From a virus: a stretch of 53,263 nucleotides of DNA. The number at the start of each line of letters is the position of its first letter. The first letter of the stretch is position 1. Both the position numbers and the translations under genes were made by a program. The stretch spans positions 1-53,263 of the IMG/VR virus record IMGVR_UViG_3300025736_000033; one strand, written 5' to 3'. Of this stretch, positions 33,466 through 51,695 are shown one piece after another. The notes under the pieces are model-generated. The model had not been told where the DNA came from, searched no databases, and was given only the letters and a program-made list of their open reading frames with translations.

Positions 33466-34016
33466 ACCCTGCCCTCCCCTGCGGTGGCGGTGGGCAAAGG
33501 CATCCAGTGAGTGACCTTGCTTCTTTGCGTGCTTCCAAACTCCAATGCCCACATCTGCGTGGTCATGTTTGACGGGATGGAATATCGCGACACGTTTATG
33601 CCCCCGCGCCCCCATTTCTCGCTGTAATACTTCACCACTTTCAGATTAGCATCTTCTGGCAACCCATCCTCAACGCTGATCCACTCCCCCGCCGCCTGCT
33701 GTGGGGCGCGGGTGGCAAGCTCTTGCTCAAGTTCAGCTATTCTCTGAGCGGGTGTTTTGCCGTATCCACGCCTGACAGTAACCTCAAATGTTTCACCCTC
33801 GCTCCTCATGTCTAACGTGATGAAATTTGGAGCGGAATAATGCGTCAACACCTTGCCAAGCTCGTAAGCCATCTTAGCAAATATAGGATGTTCAGTAATG
33901 ATCTCGCACCCGTTCTTATCCATGTGGACGCTGTGAATAGTCGCATCCTCCTTCAACTCACCCGCCCCCTTGCAGAGATTGTCGCCGCTTACACTCGTTG
34001 TCTTGCTATCACTCAT
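33462..34016 (-). CDS. DUF551-type protein, 184 aa
   Basis: From ATG 34016 in an ATGA overlap. The N-terminal 90 residues are a separate alpha/beta part. A linker ATRAPQQAAGE follows near residue 110. The rest fits the DUF551 pattern: EWISVEDGLPED at its start, a middle strand section, then VTHWMPLP at the end. DUF551 proteins are common in phage accessory regions and have no known function. The same linker and domain recur in the 235-aa gene. Confidence 0.6.
   Translation of the reverse strand: MSDSKTTSVSGDNLCKGAGELKEDATIHSVHMDKNGCEIITEHPIFAKMAYELGKVLTHYSAPNFITLDMRSEGETFEVTVRRGYGKTPAQRIAELEQELATRAPQQAAGEWISVEDGLPEDANLKVVKYYSEKWGRGGINVSRYSIPSNMTTQMWALEFGSTQRSKVTHWMPLPTATAGEGRV
33668..33719. 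repeat. RAPQQAAGE linker repeat, copy 1
   Basis: About 50 bases encoding ATRAPQQAAGEWI-type residues. It matches 35310-35352 and 35471-35504 with few differences. Confidence 0.85.
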
Positions 34017-34768
34017 CCTCTGCCGCCTTTCTCTGCTGCTGTCGGGGTGGGGGCTGTCATTGCTTCGCACATTGCCCCGCATTCGGGCAAAATGATTTTG
34101 CAGTCTCGCCCCGCTTCTGCGTCTAGCTCATCAAGAAACACGCCATTGATACACGAATGGCCTATGTCGCGCTCCATCAGTGATCGTGATTTGAACACAT
34201 CAGGGAAATCAATGCGTATCTTATTCCAATACCCCATGCCGCCCTTGACACATCCCACGCAGTTATTATTGGGGTAGCCCTTGTCATACATTACGGGCCT
34301 CGCTATGCCAGCCTGCTCAAGAATGCCGTGAGCATCGGCCTTTGAAAGCCCTGCCTCTATCAGCGGAAACTCATGCCTTTCTTCTGGCATTGAAGCCTCA
34401 AGGCGTTCTGCCCTTTTGCGTTCCCCGTCATCAAATCCCCAGACATAGCGGAAGGTGTTGAAGAATCGCGTTTGCCCCTCCCACTCTTGGCGCACCCTGC
34501 GCTTGAGCAGCCTAGAGCAAGCTGCGCCATGCGGACTACTCACAAAGGCCATGCCCCGGCACGCATTTTCAACAGACTTATATGGTGACTCCGTAACCTG
34601 AATCACCTTGCCAAACCATTCCTCACATTCCCTGACAAAGCGCATTGTATCGGGGTGTTGATCTTCAATGTGCTGATATATGATCGTGTCTATCTGGCTA
34701 ATCATTAGCTTTGTCGCTACCGCTGACGAAACGCCCGCGCTGAACCACGCTACAGTTTGCTCTTTCAT
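34013..34768 (-). CDS. PAPS reductase-like ATP pyrophosphatase, phage type
   Basis: This 251-aa protein has AWFSAGVSSAVATKL at residues 7-21, matching the PP-loop SGGxxS motif of adenine-nucleotide alpha-hydrolases. QHPDTMRFVRECEEWFG follows. Later NNCVGCVKGGMGYW gives a CxxC like those in PAPS-reductase-like phage enzymes, and CSRLLKRR is typical of the family. These enzymes activate substrates with ATP; in phages they may act in DNA or RNA modification, but the substrate is unknown. Its end is made of the 40-nt repeated cassette. Overlaps both neighbours by ATGA. Confidence 0.65.
   Translation of the reverse strand: MKEQTVAWFSAGVSSAVATKLMISQIDTIIYQHIEDQHPDTMRFVRECEEWFGKVIQVTESPYKSVENACRGMAFVSSPHGAACSRLLKRRVRQEWEGQTRFFNTFRYVWGFDDGERKRAERLEASMPEERHEFPLIEAGLSKADAHGILEQAGIARPVMYDKGYPNNNCVGCVKGGMGYWNKIRIDFPDVFKSRSLMERDIGHSCINGVFLDELDAEAGRDCKIILPECGAMCEAMTAPTPTAAEKGGRG
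34014..34053. repeat. 40-nt gene-junction repeat, copy 2
   Basis: Second copy, spanning the end of the PAPS-reductase-like gene and the start of the DUF551-type gene. See copy at 33248-33287. Confidence 0.9.
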
Positions 34769-38270: not shown

Positions 38271-38448
38271 TCTGGGCACCTTTCTTTTGCGCTTGTTTTG
38301 ATCTTGGTCACAATTGGCATGATACATGTACCAATATGGCCTAGTCAATACCCCTGATTATTTATGCAAATAATTATTGCATAGCGGTATAGGATAGTGC
38401 AGTATCTAATCAGTGAAGAGGAAAACACATAATGAAAGGCGCAAGACA
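38271..38448. promoter_or_regulatory. Divergent promoter region with dyad
   Basis: The spacer between the leftward 261-aa gene and the rightward small-gene operon. It holds ATGCAA/TTGCAT arms at 38364-38382 around an AT core, and a TTGG..CCAA dyad at about 38317-38337. A 6-residue ORF at 38432-38452 overlaps the first plus gene (ATGA). Clear -10/-35 boxes cannot be fixed by eye. Confidence 0.45.
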
Positions 38449-38577
38449 ATGAAGAGATATAGAGTCCGCGACGCACAAACATTAGGCATATTGACTATCC
38501 ATACGTCGGCTCAAGCGGCCATTGCAGATCAAGGCAATTGGCTCGCGCCCACATTTATTGACGTAGTGAGGAGCTAA
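38449..38577 (+). CDS. Small protein, 42 aa
   Basis: MKRYRVRDAQTLGILTIHTS start. AAAGGCGCAAGACA before the ATG is the same leader type as the clamp-like gene. First gene of the plus-strand operon. Not recognised. Confidence 0.5.
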   Translation: MKRYRVRDAQTLGILTIHTSAQAAIADQGNWLAPTFIDVVRS

Positions 38578-38606
38578 ACCGCAACACAAGAGAAGGAAAA
38601 CAGACA

Positions 38607-38873
38607 ATGAATAAAACATACCACGTTGAACAGCATGATCAAAACTCCTGGACAGTTGACAGTGACGGCCATTGTCACGCAATTGTAATCTGGGATTGCG
38701 GACACAAACACAGGACGGTCGGCGCAGCATATAAATGTCTGCAAAAACTGAACGGTTTTACCCGCTCAATCGGCGCAGAGATAAAGCACACTGATGGAGA
38801 TGATTTAACGGGGGCTGAGGAGCGCGATCTCGATGAATACATCCTGTCGAATGATTGGCACTGGAACCCGTAA
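38607..38873 (+). CDS. Small protein, 88 aa
   Basis: Begins MNKTYHVEQHDQNSWTV with AGAAGGAAAACAGAC before it. The sequence GHCHAIVIWDCGHKHRTV (about 22-39) has Cys/His pairs that could bind zinc, followed by a helical and acidic C-terminal half. Not recognised. Confidence 0.5.
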   Translation: MNKTYHVEQHDQNSWTVDSDGHCHAIVIWDCGHKHRTVGAAYKCLQKLNGFTRSIGAEIKHTDGDDLTGAEERDLDEYILSNDWHWNP

Positions 38874-38895
38874 TTGACGCAACACAAGAAAAGGA

Positions 38896-38920
38896 ATGCA
38901 AGACCATGAGTAAGAGCACA
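38896..38920 (+). repeat. 25-nt start-region repeat, plus copy
   Basis: ATGCAAGACC then ATGAGTAAGAGCACA is identical, on the opposite strand, to 47816-47840. It spans the ribosome-site spacer and first codons of two unrelated genes. Confidence 0.9.
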
Positions 38921-39601
38921 GTAAACGAAGAGACCAAAACCGCAATTCCACTAAAAGTTAAAATGCCGACAGAGGAAACACCGGCGCCAGTGATGTATCC
39001 GGTATATGGGCCAAGAGCTCGGGCGGTTGCGGTTGCTGCGAGTACAGACGAAACACGGTTTATCCTACAGAGTGTATACTTCTCGGAATCGCGTATGGTT
39101 GCAACTAATGGCCGGATCTTGCTATATGCCGATGTTGACACTGTCGAGGGCGGTGAACTGCCCGAAGGTGTAACCGGTGAACCGTTGGAAGATGATACGA
39201 TTATTCCAACAGAGGCGCTTTCGTCAGCCTGGAAAGGTCGGAAGGTCAGCAAGTCAATAGCAATACTGGGCAATCCCATTATCAGCAAGAATGAGATTGT
39301 AAGCACGGATCGCTCGGTTTCCAGCAAAACGGAATACAAGCCGATTGATGGAACATATCCAAACTATAAGCAGGTTATACCGGACATTTCAAAAGAGGAT
39401 ACTGCGCAGTTTACTCTTTCCGGTATCATGCTGGAAGATATCGCGAAAGCTTGCAAGGCGCTAGAGCCTGGCAAGAATTCCGGGGCAATGGTGGATTTTA
39501 CCATTGATAAAACAGTACCATCATTAACGCCACTAAAGATCATAATCAGAAGCAAAGCCGGGGACGTTTACGGCGTTGTAATGCCTTGCCGTAAGTACTA
39601 A
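38906..39601 (+). CDS. DnaN-like sliding clamp (putative)
   Basis: This 231-aa protein has ATNGRILLYAD near residue 68, like the beta-clamp ATDGHRLA segment, and IDGTYPNYKQVIPD near residue 148, like the clamp GRFPDYxRVIP segment. The rest alternates strands and helices, and the protein ends in YGVVMPCRKY. It is shorter than bacterial clamps (about 370 aa), consistent with a two-domain phage version or a divergent clamp. No phage DNA polymerase is visible, so it may bind the host polymerase, a host clamp partner or a regulator. Assigned by motif only. Confidence 0.6.
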   Translation: MSKSTVNEETKTAIPLKVKMPTEETPAPVMYPVYGPRARAVAVAASTDETRFILQSVYFSESRMVATNGRILLYADVDTVEGGELPEGVTGEPLEDDTIIPTEALSSAWKGRKVSKSIAILGNPIISKNEIVSTDRSVSSKTEYKPIDGTYPNYKQVIPDISKEDTAQFTLSGIMLEDIAKACKALEPGKNSGAMVDFTIDKTVPSLTPLKIIIRSKAGDVYGVVMPCRKY

Positions 39602-39718
39602 TGCAGAGTGACGGCGCCTATAGGCTTTTTAGCTTGTGGGCGCCGGTAATGCAGCTTATACCCGGTCACAAGTCCGGGAAGGGATAAACCGAAACACAAA
39701 CAGGAGAGGGATAAGGCA

Positions 39719-39886
39719 ATGAAAGCCTGCAGAGTATATCTTGAGGACGGCACGGACTACATAACGAGCATTAACGGAACTGATAAAGAGATTAGGAAAT
39801 ATTTTATTGGCCGCACGTTCAATTACGGCATTGAGACTGATATCATGATCAAGTGCATCAACGTTGAAATAGTGAAAGGCGAATAA
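39719..39886 (+). CDS. Small protein, 55 aa
   Basis: MKACRVYLEDGTDYITSING start with AGGAGAGGGATAAGGC upstream. It appears as a small alpha/beta protein, RTFNYGIETDIMIKCINVEI. TAATG overlaps the next gene. Not recognised. Confidence 0.55.
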   Translation: MKACRVYLEDGTDYITSINGTDKEIRKYFIGRTFNYGIETDIMIKCINVEIVKGE

Positions 39887-40209
39887 TGAAAACCTATGCA
39901 GATAGACAATTTGCTGAGAGTACACTCCAGGCTGCAGATAACATGGGGGGGATGTGCGAAGCTATGGAATACACCGGGCATAAGACGCTTGGCAATATGG
40001 CACGCAATCCCGAAACGGCCCGAATGGTGAACCGTGCACGGGCTATTTCTTCAAAGGCGCGTTACCAAGAGCTAAACACCGGCGCCAGTAGGATCATGGG
40101 GGGAATCGAGCCCACAGAACCAGAACGGGCATCGATCAAGGCCGTTTGGGATACATTGCCGGGATATACATGCTTTATAGACGCTTTGGCGATAACCGCC
40201 AGGTGGTAA
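39886..40209 (+). CDS. Hypothetical protein, 107 aa
   Basis: Starts MKTYADRQFAESTLQAADNM in a TAATG overlap. Helical with many Ala/Glu/Arg, and Cys at GMCEAMEY and GYTCFIDAL. Not recognised. Confidence 0.5.
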   Translation: MKTYADRQFAESTLQAADNMGGMCEAMEYTGHKTLGNMARNPETARMVNRARAISSKARYQELNTGASRIMGGIEPTEPERASIKAVWDTLPGYTCFIDALAITARW

Positions 40210-40309
40210 CACTCCCCCCCTGCTGCCGTTGTAGCTTTATTTGCTCCGGTAGTAGGGGGGTAATTCTTTTGCGCTGGATAATGACTACATAACAAAGGGG
40301 AAAAGCGAT

Positions 40310-40543
40310 ATGACGCCAACACTAACGGACAACATACAAGAGGCACTGTGGCAAGAACAAGAGGCGCGTAATGCCCTGGCATTGGGTCTGCGGGACGTAA
40401 TAACCAAGCAGGAACTAGTCCAGACTATCCGCTTTATCATGCGGAAACCTGGGGGAAAGCTGCCAACACGAACAAACAGGAGATCACCGGCGGTCAAGGA
40501 TAGGTATCACCAGGACGCTGAACTTGCACGGGCTGGGGTATAA
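40310..40543 (+). CDS. Hypothetical protein, 77 aa
   Basis: MTPTLTDNIQEALWQEQEAR start after AAAGGGGAAAAGCGAT. Helical N-terminus and basic C-terminus (GGKLPTRTNRRSPAVKDR). Overlaps the next tiny ORF by TAATG. Confidence 0.5.
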   Translation: MTPTLTDNIQEALWQEQEARNALALGLRDVITKQELVQTIRFIMRKPGGKLPTRTNRRSPAVKDRYHQDAELARAGV

Positions 40544-41985: not shown

Positions 41986-42170
41986 ATTACCAACTCCTAC
42001 TTCCACTCCAACTCCAACTCCTACTTCCACTCCAACTCCAACTTCCACTCCAACTCCAACTCCTACTTCCACTCCAACTCCAACTCCTACTTCCACTCCT
42101 ACTCATACTCCTACTCCTACTCCAACTCCCACTCCTACTCATACTCCTACTCCTGCTCCTACTCCATCTC
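41986..42170. repeat. Hexanucleotide repeat array, about 185 bp
   Basis: Imperfect units of 6 bases, on the minus strand GGAGTN and variants such as GGAAGT. Reading frames give Ser-Arg/Trp repeats or Gly-Val/Glu repeats. The Gly-Val/Glu frame is continuous with the preceding 85-aa gene but is blocked by three TGA codons. It lies directly downstream of that gene. A second array of this style lies at 51495-51663. Confidence 0.85.
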
Positions 42171-42186
42171 CTGCTATTAACTGGCA

Positions 42187-42535: not shown

Positions 42536-43447
42536 CTAAAACCCCGGTCCTGTTATGTCATCATCATCATCATCAGGGGGTATCCAGTCCTCGGTTGTGC
42601 CTGTCTGGTATGTTCGCTCGGTGATCCGCATGGTCTTACCGTCGAAATCACACCGGACCTCATGGCCCCCACCATCCTTTGTACTTTTCAGGCACTTGAC
42701 CCGCAGTAGGTTGCTGTCTTCGTCATCACCGCGCATCAGACCGAACACTATGCCGGCGCTTTCCTCAATCTCACCGGCATTCCGCGCTGAGTGCAGTCCT
42801 ATCTCACCTGTATTGCCGTCTTCGCCGCTTCTGTGGACCTGTGAAGCACAGATTATGATGGTGTTAGTGGCCTTAGCTGTGCGCTTGAGCTCCTGCGCTG
42901 CCTGGGCTATCCGTTCGTAACGCTTGGCGCCTTTGCTGTTCATCAGCCCAATGTAATCGACTATGACTATCACCGGTTTGTGCCCGTACTTCTCTGGGTA
43001 GTCCACTTCGATGATCTCAGACAGTGCCGTTTCGTCTATTCGGCTTTCGTCACATACAATGATGTGTTCCAGCCCTTCGAAGTAGGGACGTAGCCTTTCA
43101 AGATCCTCGTGGGTGCTGGATTGCTTGTAGTCGGCCTGTATGCTCTTGCAATCCACGCCTGAGTGCATCGCGGCGAACCGTTCGTAGGCCAGTGTGCCGG
43201 GTAGCTCCATCTCCATGAACAGCACAGGGAGCGGGTTAGCGGCCTTGGCTATCGCCTGTAATACGGCTGTTTTCCCCGTTCCCGTGTCACCTAAGAAGAA
43301 TATCAGCTCACCGCGTAACGCCGGGCGCATCTTTTCTCCTAACGATGGGAGCCACTTGCCCCAGTCGAGTGAGAACTTCTGTGAAACCAGCGAGTCAATC
43401 ATGTACTGCTGGTGTAGGTCTTCAAGGTTTTTCAGTTCGTGGGTCAT
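42536..43447 (-). CDS. DnaB-type replicative helicase (C-terminal domain only)
   Basis: 303 aa. Walker A is FLGDTGTGKTAV (about residues 50-62) and Walker B is VIVIVDYIGLM (about 158-168). HSARNAGEIEESAGIVFGLM near residue 220 is like the DnaB arginine-finger region, and a short C-terminal Asp/Gly tail follows. It lacks the DnaB N-terminal domain, so a separate loader or the initiator protein may recruit it. Fits phage RecA-fold helicases that open DNA at the fork. Its start overlaps the methyltransferase stop (ATGA). Confidence 0.8.
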   Translation of the reverse strand: MTHELKNLEDLHQQYMIDSLVSQKFSLDWGKWLPSLGEKMRPALRGELIFFLGDTGTGKTAVLQAIAKAANPLPVLFMEMELPGTLAYERFAAMHSGVDCKSIQADYKQSSTHEDLERLRPYFEGLEHIIVCDESRIDETALSEIIEVDYPEKYGHKPVIVIVDYIGLMNSKGAKRYERIAQAAQELKRTAKATNTIIICASQVHRSGEDGNTGEIGLHSARNAGEIEESAGIVFGLMRGDDEDSNLLRVKCLKSTKDGGGHEVRCDFDGKTMRITERTYQTGTTEDWIPPDDDDDDITGPGF

Positions 43448-44073
43448 AGTGCTAATACCTCTTGCTGTAGGCGAATCGCAGCTATCTCGCAGTACTTCTC
43501 TTCCAGCTCAATGCCGATGCACTTGCGCCGTAGGTCTTTCGCGGCCCGTAGCGTTGTGCCTGAACCCATGAACGGGTCAAGGATTGTTTGCGCCTCGGGG
43601 TAGAACCCCATACACCACTTCATCAATGCTTCTGGTTTTTGTGTCGGGTGAACACGCGGAATCCCGCGCTCCGACTTTCTATTAAACCCATCCCAGTAAT
43701 GCCGAAACATCCGGTCAACGCCCTTATCTGAACACCATGCAAGCTCACAGTCGGCTTGGTCACGCTCTGGTATAACGCCCTCGCGCTTGTCCCACACGAG
43801 CCATCTTCCCCCGTCAGGAATCCTCGCGTGGTAATGGTTTGCGCCCCAGACAATCATTGGGCGCGGTAGGAATGCCGGATCGAACGGAGTATCATCACCA
43901 GCTACCGCATCAATTACCGTGGGTGCGTTTGCGTAATTCCCCCCGCCATGCTTGTACGCTATCCCATAAGGCGGGTCAGTCAGCACAAGGTCAACCTTGT
44001 CCAGCGTTGGCAGTACCTCCCGGCAATCCGCGTGGAATATGGTTGCATAATCGTCTTTGTAGTATGGCTTCAT
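43444..44073 (-). CDS. DNA adenine/cytosine-N4 methyltransferase, phage type
   Basis: 209 aa. VLTDPPYGIAYKHGGG at about residues 30-46 holds the DPPY catalytic motif. HPTQKPEALMKW at about 143 and ILDPFMGSGTTLRAAKDL at about 165 form the AdoMet-binding motif. This order (catalytic motif first) is the beta class used by many phage methyltransferases. It likely protects phage DNA from host restriction or marks it. Target site not deducible. ATGA overlaps with the initiator-like gene and the helicase. Confidence 0.85.
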   Translation of the reverse strand: MKPYYKDDYATIFHADCREVLPTLDKVDLVLTDPPYGIAYKHGGGNYANAPTVIDAVAGDDTPFDPAFLPRPMIVWGANHYHARIPDGGRWLVWDKREGVIPERDQADCELAWCSDKGVDRMFRHYWDGFNRKSERGIPRVHPTQKPEALMKWCMGFYPEAQTILDPFMGSGTTLRAAKDLRRKCIGIELEEKYCEIAAIRLQQEVLAL

Positions 44074-45299: not shown

Positions 45300-45818
45300 C
45301 TATCCCCTCCTATTCCAAGGCTCAACCCATTCAAGGCCAAGCAATTCAAACAAGTATTCTTCCTCTGGTACTGGATGGATCTGACCCAAATGAGTCAGGT
45401 TCCCATCCACACCATGAAAGTTCTTACCTACCCAGCCTCGGGCCAGTACCTTGTGCGAGTATTCCGCTGGTCCGGTACGTATTGCTAACTGATAGCCCCA
45501 GTTGATCGGAGTAGCTGTGAATATATCTACCTTGATCCCTGTAGATGTCAGCCGTTGCATGTACCTGCCCTTAACAGCATCGCCCTTCAGTGTCTTCATG
45601 CAATCAACAGCAGCTATGAAGCGAATATCACGCTCTATTCCCACCACCTCCCCCAACAGGTCCAGTATAGGGATTGTCTTCGGAATACATACTATCTCTA
45701 TGTCGCCCGGATTTGGCTTACGCCTTCGTACACTCCCTGCAATAGCGATCCTGTCGCAACCTGGTTCTATCAGGTAAACAAGGTGCTCTGCTGCCCCTTT
45801 GGCTTCATCTAAGTTCAT
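45300..45818 (-). CDS. DNA polymerase beta-like nucleotidyltransferase
   Basis: 172 aa. IAIAGSVRRRKPNPGDIEIV at about 24-43 holds the GSxRR turn and the first Asp pair (D-I-E) of the polymerase X palm. KVDIFTATPINWGYQLA at about 97-113 gives the third carboxylate Asp. The short length means palm plus part of the thumb only, as in small phage PolX-like proteins. It may fill gaps, repair ends or modify nucleotides; the lyase and fingers domains are absent. Confidence 0.75.
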   Translation of the reverse strand: MNLDEAKGAAEHLVYLIEPGCDRIAIAGSVRRRKPNPGDIEIVCIPKTIPILDLLGEVVGIERDIRFIAAVDCMKTLKGDAVKGRYMQRLTSTGIKVDIFTATPINWGYQLAIRTGPAEYSHKVLARGWVGKNFHGVDGNLTHLGQIHPVPEEEYLFELLGLEWVEPWNRRG

Positions 45819-47341: not shown

Positions 47342-47552
47342 TGGACACCTCCCGCAACTCACGGTGCTGCTTACAGTGATCTGCACAGCAGTACCCGCCA
47401 TTGTGGGTGTGCCTGACTTCACAGCCTGGTAGTAGGCAGTCGCGTTCCTTACTGGGTGCTGGGTGGTAGTTGTGAATTGGTGGTGGCAACTTGCCCCAGA
47501 GTGCGTATGTGAACATTGCCGAAGCCACTGCGTGTACTGTTTTCTTACTCAT
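47334..47552 (-). CDS. Cys/His small protein, 72 aa
   Basis: MSKKTVHAVASAMFTYALWG start. CLLPGCEVRHTHNGGYCCAD then HCKQHRELREV has the spacing of a CCHC/HNH-like or zinc-binding knuckle (about residues 39-65). ATGA overlap with the 93-aa gene. Confidence 0.5.
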   Translation of the reverse strand: MSKKTVHAVASAMFTYALWGKLPPPIHNYHPAPSKERDCLLPGCEVRHTHNGGYCCADHCKQHRELREVSNG

Positions 47553-47830
47553 TTGCCTATCTCCTGATTAGGCACATAATAAGCATCAACAAGATCTATT
47601 ATGGTCGCAAGTTGATGGTTGATAGTTGCATGGAATAACTGACATTCCATGTCAATTTGATTTGGCCGTTGGTTATGCCGGCCGTTGTAGTAGTCCACGG
47701 CAGCATCCCTGCGCTCTTTGAAGTCGCTCGGCTTGGCGCAGGTTTTTGGTCCGAACTTAATCATGTACCCACCAAGTATCAATGCTTCTAATATTGGCTG
47801 GTAGATTTTATAGTGTGTGCTCTTACTCAT
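47549..47830 (-). CDS. Hypothetical protein, 93 aa
   Basis: From ATG 47830 with AAAGGATGCAAGACC, a start region shared with the clamp-like gene. Begins MSKSTHYKIYQPILEALILG. Helical, with a His-rich middle (HATINHQLATIIDLV). Not recognised. Confidence 0.5.
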   Translation of the reverse strand: MSKSTHYKIYQPILEALILGGYMIKFGPKTCAKPSDFKERRDAAVDYYNGRHNQRPNQIDMECQLFHATINHQLATIIDLVDAYYVPNQEIGK

Positions 47831-49455: not shown

Positions 49456-50169
49456 TCAGAACGGGAAATTCTCTTCCGCTTCAGGCTCACCACTTACCGG
49501 ATCAATACCCGCTGGCGGTTCTGACTGTTCAGGACCAGCAGGAGCAACGTCACGTATAATCTCAGGCTCGTTAGTTGCTTCTGGTATCCTGTTCGATGCT
49601 TCCTTGCGTTCCCCATATTCCTTGGACTCTGCAATAATCTCGCGTAGCCAAGTAGGCAGATCAGCAGGGAGCTCGTCTGTCTTGCAGTCATCAAAGCTGA
49701 AGTACACCAGCGGATTCTCTGACTTTGGTGCTTCCATCCCACCGGGCAGTCCCATGATAGCCTTGACATTGGAGTACACCTTCTCACCATCTGCCGATGT
49801 GTTGTGAATCACCTGAAGCTGGCAAGCTGCTCCTAGTACAGCCTTCATATCAAACCCATCAAGGTCAGCCTTCGTGAACGCTTTGCCGCGCCATGCTTCC
49901 AGGTCTTTCCGCAGTGAAGCCTTCTTGTGCAGGCTCTGTGTGTACTTATTGCTGATAGCACGTGGGAGATTAACCATTGTCCCATCGCGTTCAAACTCAG
50001 CACGTACATGAGGAAGTTCCCATGTTACCATTACTTCACGCACGTACTTGTCGTAGTGCCTATTGTGCTGAGTGCCAAGATCCACAAGGCTGTAACATAC
50101 CGCTACATGCACGCCTTCCGGTATCGGGTCATAAGTCTTGCCGCCTTCTGCTTTTACTATTAGTCCCAT
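49456..50169 (-). CDS. ssDNA-binding-like protein with acidic C-terminal tip
   Basis: 237 aa. N-terminal half is beta-type (EGVHVAVCYSLVDLGTQH, EVMVTWELPH). SLRKDLEAWRGKAFTKADLDG near residue 85, and CQLQVIHNTSADGEKVYSNV, follow the pattern of a phage protein family that replaces SSB. The C-terminus is Pro/Glu-rich and ends EAEENFPF, like the acidic DDIPF tip of SSB that recruits partners. It lies next to an exonuclease gene, so a role with recombination or replication of single strands is likely. Confidence 0.65.
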   Translation of the reverse strand: MGLIVKAEGGKTYDPIPEGVHVAVCYSLVDLGTQHNRHYDKYVREVMVTWELPHVRAEFERDGTMVNLPRAISNKYTQSLHKKASLRKDLEAWRGKAFTKADLDGFDMKAVLGAACQLQVIHNTSADGEKVYSNVKAIMGLPGGMEAPKSENPLVYFSFDDCKTDELPADLPTWLREIIAESKEYGERKEASNRIPEATNEPEIIRDVAPAGPEQSEPPAGIDPVSGEPEAEENFPF

Positions 50170-51488: not shown

Positions 51489-51695
51489 TCAGCCATCGCC
51501 AGCGCCATAGCCAGAGCCATAGCCAGAGCCATCGCCATAGCCAGAGCCATAGCCAGAGCCATCGCCAGAGCCATCGCCAGCGCCATAGCCAGAGCCATAG
51601 CCAGAGCCAGAGCCATAGCCAGAGCCAGAGCCATCGCCATAGCCAGCGCCAGAGCCATAGCCAGATGCTTTGCCCCGCATGTCTACTTTTTCCAT
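51489..51695 (-). CDS. Gly-X repeat protein, 68 aa
   Basis: MEKVDMRGKASGYGSG start, then almost pure Gly-Tyr/Ser/Asp/Ala dipeptide repeats to the stop. It overlaps the end of the DUF6948-type gene by 13 bases. Low-complexity Gly-Tyr-Ser segments are flexible and can phase-separate or act as extended linkers. Function here unknown. Array at 51495-51663 underlies it. Confidence 0.5.
   Translation of the reverse strand: MEKVDMRGKASGYGSGAGYGDGSGSGYGSGSGYGSGYGAGDGSGDGSGYGSGYGDGSGYGSGYGAGDG
51495..51663. repeat. Hexanucleotide repeat array, about 170 bp
   Basis: Units of 6 bases (GGCTAT, GGCTCT, GGCGAT, GGCGCT on the minus strand) in a semi-ordered pattern encode Gly-X. The array style is comparable with the GGAGTN array at 41986-42170. 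Confidence 0.9.

What the first reader, a model, noticed from the sequence alone, without database searches (positions are those of the whole stretch)
38906..39601. DnaN-like clamp in a phage with no visible DNA polymerase
Motifs like ATNGRIL and YPNYKQVIP suggest a sliding clamp relative of only 231 aa. The window holds helicase, initiator-like and J-domain proteins, but no polymerase, so the clamp may hijack the host polymerase or block host clamp partners.
Basis: partly seen in the sequence, partly recalled or inferred. Interest (0 to 1): 0.6.

Follow-up and report, generated by a model that had tools for sequence, protein, structure and literature searches.

The report
Ringless DnaN fragment in a phage
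This phage gene encodes a shortened copy of the bacterial DNA sliding clamp that keeps the groove where partner proteins dock but lacks the parts known to close the clamp into a ring, so it probably competes for or redirects the host's replication proteins; many other phages carry similar genes, and I found no report of anyone testing one.

Summary
The ORF at 38906-39601 (+) is a real gene for a DnaN (beta clamp) relative: PHROG short-clamp family E 1.7e-20, clamp profile E 2.6e-11, fold matches only to sliding clamps. It is not a small version of the whole clamp. It is E. coli DnaN domain II plus the C-terminal half of domain III. Domain I and the first half of domain III, which carry the known dimer interface, are missing. 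What is kept is the groove that binds clamp-binding peptides: 11 of 15 aligned groove residues match E. coli, against 12% elsewhere. The same architecture recurs in a large, database-named but functionally untested phage family (539 of 600 candidate stretches). It includes Bcep781 gp15, whose record says 'Pol III b subunit fragment'. Many records misname it 'RusA-like resolvase'. 'No DNA polymerase' is only partly right: no A, B or C family polymerase is found, but a PolX-like 172-aa protein lies at 45300-45818, and the record is a fragment. Best mechanism: a ringless groove module that binds host clamp partners, as competitor or redirector (about 0.45). Main rival: a mini-clamp that assembles differently.

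The parts
38906..39601 (+). short DnaN-like protein, 231 aa (P0001)
38891..38895 (+). Shine-Dalgarno-like AAGGA, inside a leader shared with the gene at 47549-47830 (-)
   Evidence: sequence
38906..38992 (+). N-terminal extension, residues 1-29, not in most relatives, which start about 20 aa before the R-[YF]-x-L motif
38993..39382 (+). domain II equivalent (residues 30-159), two beta-alpha-beta-beta-beta motifs
39056..39067 (+). groove residues R51 and L54 = E. coli R152, L155; invariant in 66 relatives
   Evidence: groove list from PMC11139829
39101..39121 (+). ATNGRIL: groove residues T172, G174, L177 kept; H175 is R and R176 is I
39356..39382 (+). YPNYKQVIP: groove residues P242, V247 kept; R246 is Q
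39383..39598 (+). reduced domain III: C-terminal half only; about 57 residues of the first half missing
39575..39592 (+). VVMPCR: C-terminal groove strand (V360, M362, P363, R365 kept; M364 is C)
38413..40543 (+). plus-strand island of small genes holding the clamp fragment, inside an otherwise minus-strand genome
45300..45818 (-). PolX-like protein, 172 aa (GSVRR, GDIEIV, KVDIF...WG..L..TG); bears on the 'no polymerase' claim

Best explanation
The gene encodes a ringless fragment of DnaN: domain II plus the C-terminal half of domain III, three of the six beta-alpha-beta-beta-beta motifs of a clamp protomer. These form the peptide-binding groove. I infer that the protein stays monomeric or forms a non-canonical oligomer and uses the groove to bind clamp-binding motifs of host proteins (Pol III alpha/PolC, the clamp-loader delta subunit, repair polymerases, Hda/MutS-type factors), competing with the host clamp and so stalling or redirecting host replication. 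Shown: homology, architecture, groove conservation, absence of interface regions, no phage clamp-loader delta found, no excess of phage clamp-binding motifs. Inferred: oligomeric state, partners, effect on the host.
For: Architecture: profile alignment of 66 short clamps to full-length clamps, probability 99.9%, E 3.3e-33, with a deletion of about 57 columns in domain III. Residue coverage of E. coli DnaN by the window protein and 10 phage relatives: domain I 5-17% (a few N-terminal residues, not a real domain), domain II about 78-87%, first half of domain III 5-10%, second half 89-100%. PF02767 (central domain) hits 55 of 58 family members and PF02768 hits none. Groove: mean conservation 3.29 bits at groove columns against 1.59 elsewhere, 0 of 100,000 permutations as high. 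Window protein: 11 of 15 groove identities against 12% elsewhere, P 4e-7; with the other alignment 11 of 18, P 5.5e-5. The interface residues Ile78, Phe106, Ile272, Leu273 named in PMC11139829 lie in the missing parts in the profile alignment. The clamp-loader delta subunit binds monomeric beta about 50 times tighter than the dimer (PMC11139829), so a ringless groove could be a strong competitor. No clamp-loader delta in 36 records searched, the window among them. The window's own proteins hold 2 clamp-binding-like motifs against 3.7 in shuffles, and the PolA-like ORFs of related phages hold 1 in 20, which points to host partners. A canonical 190-aa relative folds with pLDDT 96.5 and matches E. 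coli clamps at TM about 0.7 of its length.
Against: A conserved groove is equally expected of a working processivity factor. 22 of 35 short-clamp records carry a PolA-like polymerase, so a role in phage synthesis is possible, although 3 of 9 arbitrary records of 30 kb or more also do (p 0.14). The family often has K at positions 148/149 near the DNA path. H175, R176, R246 and M364 of the groove are changed in the window protein. N320, Y323 and V344 could not be placed in the seeded alignment. In that alignment the Ile272/Leu273 columns are occupied, by K/E/A and L/A/I, so which half of domain III is lost is not beyond dispute. No binding, oligomer or toxicity data exist.
Confidence: 0.45

Rival explanations
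1. A miniature sliding clamp: three motifs per protomer, closing DNA-encircling rings by a new interface (for instance four protomers, twelve motifs), loaded by the host loader and holding a host or phage polymerase on phage DNA.
For: Compact, confidently folded clamp module (pLDDT 96.5); family keeps the polymerase-binding groove; PolA-like polymerase in 22 of 35 short-clamp records and 0 of 5 records with full-length clamps, p 0.009 for A or B family; BcepC6B has the gene next to its polymerase.
Against: The known interface regions are gone. Known clamps close with six domains, two or three whole domains per subunit, head to tail (PMC9690074); an odd number of half-domains does not fit this directly (inference). 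The PolA-like ORFs lack canonical clamp-binding motifs. K198 of the channel is D or E in 46 of 66. PolA enrichment is not significant against the small length-matched control.
Confidence: 0.28
2. A non-ring processivity tether of the UL42/UL44 type: monomer or dimer that binds DNA directly and holds a polymerase.
For: Non-ring viral clamps exist and need no loader (PMC9690074); no phage clamp-loader delta found.
Against: Such clamps are strongly basic; the window protein has pI 5.46 and net charge -2, and the family median is pI 7.0, charge 0.
Confidence: 0.12
3. A decaying remnant of a full-length phage clamp, without function.
For: It is a fragment by comparison with DnaN; the Bcep781 record calls its relative a fragment.
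Against: The same truncation recurs across many diverse phage records with intact ORFs, clean start sites and invariant groove residues.
Confidence: 0.03
4. A RusA-like Holliday junction resolvase, as phrog_3007 and many records name it.
For: Name attached to phrog_3007, E 1.7e-20.
Against: Sequence, profile and fold are those of the clamp; Bcep781 has a separate Rus gene, gp22, besides gp15.
Confidence: 0.01

Closest known systems
Short phage 'DNA polymerase III beta, central domain' proteins (phrog_3007; Bcep781 gp15, BcepC6B, Skatevirus Bas77, Dhillonvirus, Obolenskvirus)
   Same: Length about 177-257 aa, domain II plus C-terminal half of domain III, same groove residues, in several cases in a counter-oriented small-gene island
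   Different: The window protein is a divergent member (14-30% identity) with a 29-residue N-terminal extension and R/I/Q/C at groove positions 175, 176, 246, 364
Bacterial beta sliding clamp DnaN (E. coli, 366 aa)
   Same: Domain II fold and peptide groove
   Different: No domain I, half of domain III, no known dimer interface; TIGR00663 29.5 bits against a cut-off of 137.65
Full-length phage DnaN clamps (Salinibacter M8CR30-2, Sinorhizobium AP-16-3, Paracoccus Pyei1)
   Same: Phage-borne DnaN homologues with the same groove
   Different: All three domains present; none of eight records with full-length clamps has a PolA-like polymerase
UL42/UL44 non-ring viral processivity factors
   Same: Clamp-fold protein without a closed ring (as proposed here)
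   Different: Those are basic DNA binders; this one is acidic (PMC9690074)

Membership tests
Beta sliding clamp (DnaN) | homologous central domain (domain II) | tested here: met
   PF02767 in 55 of 58 relatives, though not in P0001 itself
Beta sliding clamp (DnaN) | three complete domains per protomer | tested here: not met
Beta sliding clamp (DnaN) | dimer interface residues (I78, F106, I272, L273) | tested here: not met
   78 and 106 absent in all 66 sequences; 272/273 absent in the profile alignment, occupied by other residues in the seeded one
Beta sliding clamp (DnaN) | clamp-binding-motif groove | tested here: met
   11 of 15 identical; family conservation
Beta sliding clamp (DnaN) | NCBIfam equivalog cut-off TIGR00663 | tested here: not met
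   29.5 bits against 137.65
Beta sliding clamp (DnaN) | forms a DNA-encircling ring loaded by a clamp loader | not testable with these tools
   no multimer prediction or biochemistry available
Short phage DnaN fragments (phrog_3007) | profile match over nearly the whole length | tested here: met
   residues 39-230 to profile 11-186 of 190, E 1.7e-20
Short phage DnaN fragments (phrog_3007) | domain II plus C-terminal half of domain III, ending in [VI]MPxR | tested here: met
RusA-like Holliday junction resolvase | RusA fold | tested here: not met
   Foldseek hits of the P0001 model at E <= 1e-3 are clamps, PCNA or 9-1-1; the listed hits of the canonical relative are all bacterial clamps
UL42-type processivity factor | strongly basic, binds DNA without a ring | tested here: not met
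   pI 5.46; DNA binding itself not testable here

The most novel reading that the evidence does not exclude
A very common phage family made from only the peptide groove of the bacterial clamp acts as a soluble decoy that takes host polymerase III and clamp-loader delta away from the host clamp: a general phage tool for host replication takeover, hidden in databases as 'RusA-like' or 'Pol III beta'.
Probability: 0.35. Interest if true: 0.78.

Novelty: new variant of a known kind. Interest (0 to 1): 0.52.

Why it matters
If right, phages repeatedly cut the host clamp down to its docking groove, which would be a natural protein competitor of the groove that antibiotic designers try to block. The family has members in E. 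coli phages (Bas77-Bas80 and Dhillonvirus), so function can be tested directly in laboratory strains. It would also correct a common misannotation.

Tried and rejected
Single-sequence scans of viral contigs with the clamp, helicase, left-end protein and PolX-like protein found no relatives; the terminase returned only fragments of the same virus at 100% identity. Terminal repeats: none. Pfam on P0001 alone: nothing. PolX-like protein against phages and plasmids: no match. PolA enrichment as proof of a processivity role: rejected as unproven, because an arbitrary-15-mer control gave 3 of 9 records of 30 kb or more. Start at Met30 (the usual family start) considered; rejected because 38906 has a Shine-Dalgarno and a shared leader. 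Literature: searches found no functional study of short phage clamps; the BASEL paper does not mention a clamp; the Kazlauskas and Venclovas 2011 survey (cited in PMC9690074) is not held, so a prior description of such short clamps there cannot be excluded.

Full report
Observation. The ORF 38906-39601 (+) translates to 231 aa with the motifs quoted. Its start has AAGGA 10 nt upstream and a leader shared with a second gene of the phage. It matches phrog_3007 at E 1.7e-20 over nearly its whole length, the PHROG 'DNA polymerase processivity factor' at 2.6e-11 and TIGR00663 dnaN at 3.6e-7 but far under its cut-off. Among solved structures its best sequence hits are beta clamps.

Anatomy. Aligned with E. 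coli DnaN and other phage proteins, the protein covers domain II and the C-terminal half of domain III. Domain I and the first half of domain III are missing. The same gap appears when a profile of 66 short clamps is compared with full-length clamps (probability 99.9%, E 3.3e-33). It also appears when the 58-member profile is searched against the PDB: 55 clamp sequences, best E 3.1e-30, plus a separate weaker match (8 bits) of the tail to residues 320-373 of the best chain. A seeded MAFFT alignment instead places the leftover helix on the first half of domain III. The exact ancestry of that helix is therefore uncertain, but one motif is lost either way and the last strand with [VI]MPxR is that of DnaN. 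The AlphaFold model of P0001 (pLDDT 77.6, pTM 0.77) and of a canonical 190-aa relative (pLDDT 96.5, pTM 0.89) show two motifs of domain II and one further motif. Foldseek matches are to sliding clamps.

What is conserved. The groove residues listed in the beta-clamp review PMC11139829 average 3.29 bits of conservation in the short family against 1.59 for other columns; none of 100,000 permutations reached that. R152 and L155 are invariant in 66 sequences. The window protein keeps 11 of 15 groove residues against 12% identity elsewhere. Of the channel positions I checked (chosen from my own knowledge of DNA-contacting residues), K198 is D or E in 46 of 66, while position 148 is K in 40, so the evidence on DNA binding is mixed.

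Family. Nearly all of those read begin about 20 residues before the R-Y-Y-L motif. Named examples are Bcep781 gp15 ('DNA Pol III b subunit fragment'), BcepC6B, Dhillonvirus, Skatevirus Bas77, Obolenskvirus and Vibrio phages. Many records carry the phrog_3007 label 'RusA-like Holliday junction resolvase'. Bcep781 also has a distinct Rus gene, which together with the fold results shows the label is wrong. In the window, Bcep781, Bas77 and the Dhillonvirus the gene lies alone or in a small island on the strand opposite the structural genes.

Polymerase question. The window has no DNA_pol_A, DNA_pol_B or PolIII-alpha match. It does have a 172-aa PolX-like protein at 45300-45818 (-): Pfam thumb E 9e-5, palm E 0.003, weak PDB alignment to an X-family polymerase across GS-RR, GD-I, VD and TG motifs. 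All of these are below curated cut-offs or weak, so I call it likely, not shown. The record is a linear fragment with a 722-codon open frame at its left end, so absence of a polymerase says little about the virus. Across relatives, 22 of 35 short-clamp records carry a PolA-like polymerase and one a PolB, against 0 of 5 records with full-length clamps. An arbitrary control gave 3 of 9 at 30 kb or more, so enrichment is only suggestive. None of 36 records searched, the window among them, carries a clamp-loader delta.

Mechanism. A groove without the known ring interface, no phage loader subunit found, no clamp-binding motif excess in the phage's own proteins (2 against 3.7 in shuffles) and almost none in the PolA-like ORFs of relatives point to host partners. 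Because delta binds monomeric beta about 50 times tighter than the dimer (PMC11139829), such a module could compete effectively with the host clamp. This is inference; a mini-clamp with a new interface is the main rival. The protein is acidic (pI 5.46), which argues against a UL42-like direct DNA tether.

Known or new. The family is in databases and was called a fragment in the Bcep781 record, but I found no functional study in the open library. One relevant survey could not be read. The window protein is a divergent member; the specific point that the family is domain II plus half of domain III, keeping the groove and losing the interface, is what I add.

Noticed in passing
45300-45818 (-): Likely PolX-like nucleotidyltransferase of 172 aa; no relatives found in phages, plasmids or viral contigs by tblastn
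   Followed up: partly
upstream of 38449 and 38906 (+) and of 47830 (-): Near-identical gene leaders (AAAGG..GCAAGAC.ATG) before three genes on both strands
   Followed up: partly
41990-42172 and 51491-51665: Two tandem-repeat arrays (units of 12-42 bases) that open as low-complexity Ser/Arg/Trp and Trp/Leu/Arg frames
   Followed up: no
49456-50169 (-): NCBIfam phage replication initiation protein, NGO0469 family, 199 bits against a cut-off of 75
   Followed up: no
34013-34768 (-): Phosphoadenosine phosphosulfate reductase-like gene (phrog_424, E 1e-35)
   Followed up: no
43444-44073 (-): DNA methyltransferase (phrog_67 E 2.6e-50; Pfam N6_N4_Mtase), next to the DnaB-like helicase gene
   Followed up: no
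phrog_3007 and records such as NP_705641.1 (L012:7944-8525): DnaN-fragment family widely misnamed RusA-like Holliday junction resolvase
   Followed up: yes
window ends: Open frame of 722 codons runs off the left end on the minus strand; no terminal repeats, so the record is a fragment
   Followed up: yes
L002, L003, L004: Three other viral contigs carry the same terminase at 100% identity, so the same virus population is in at least three other samples
   Followed up: no
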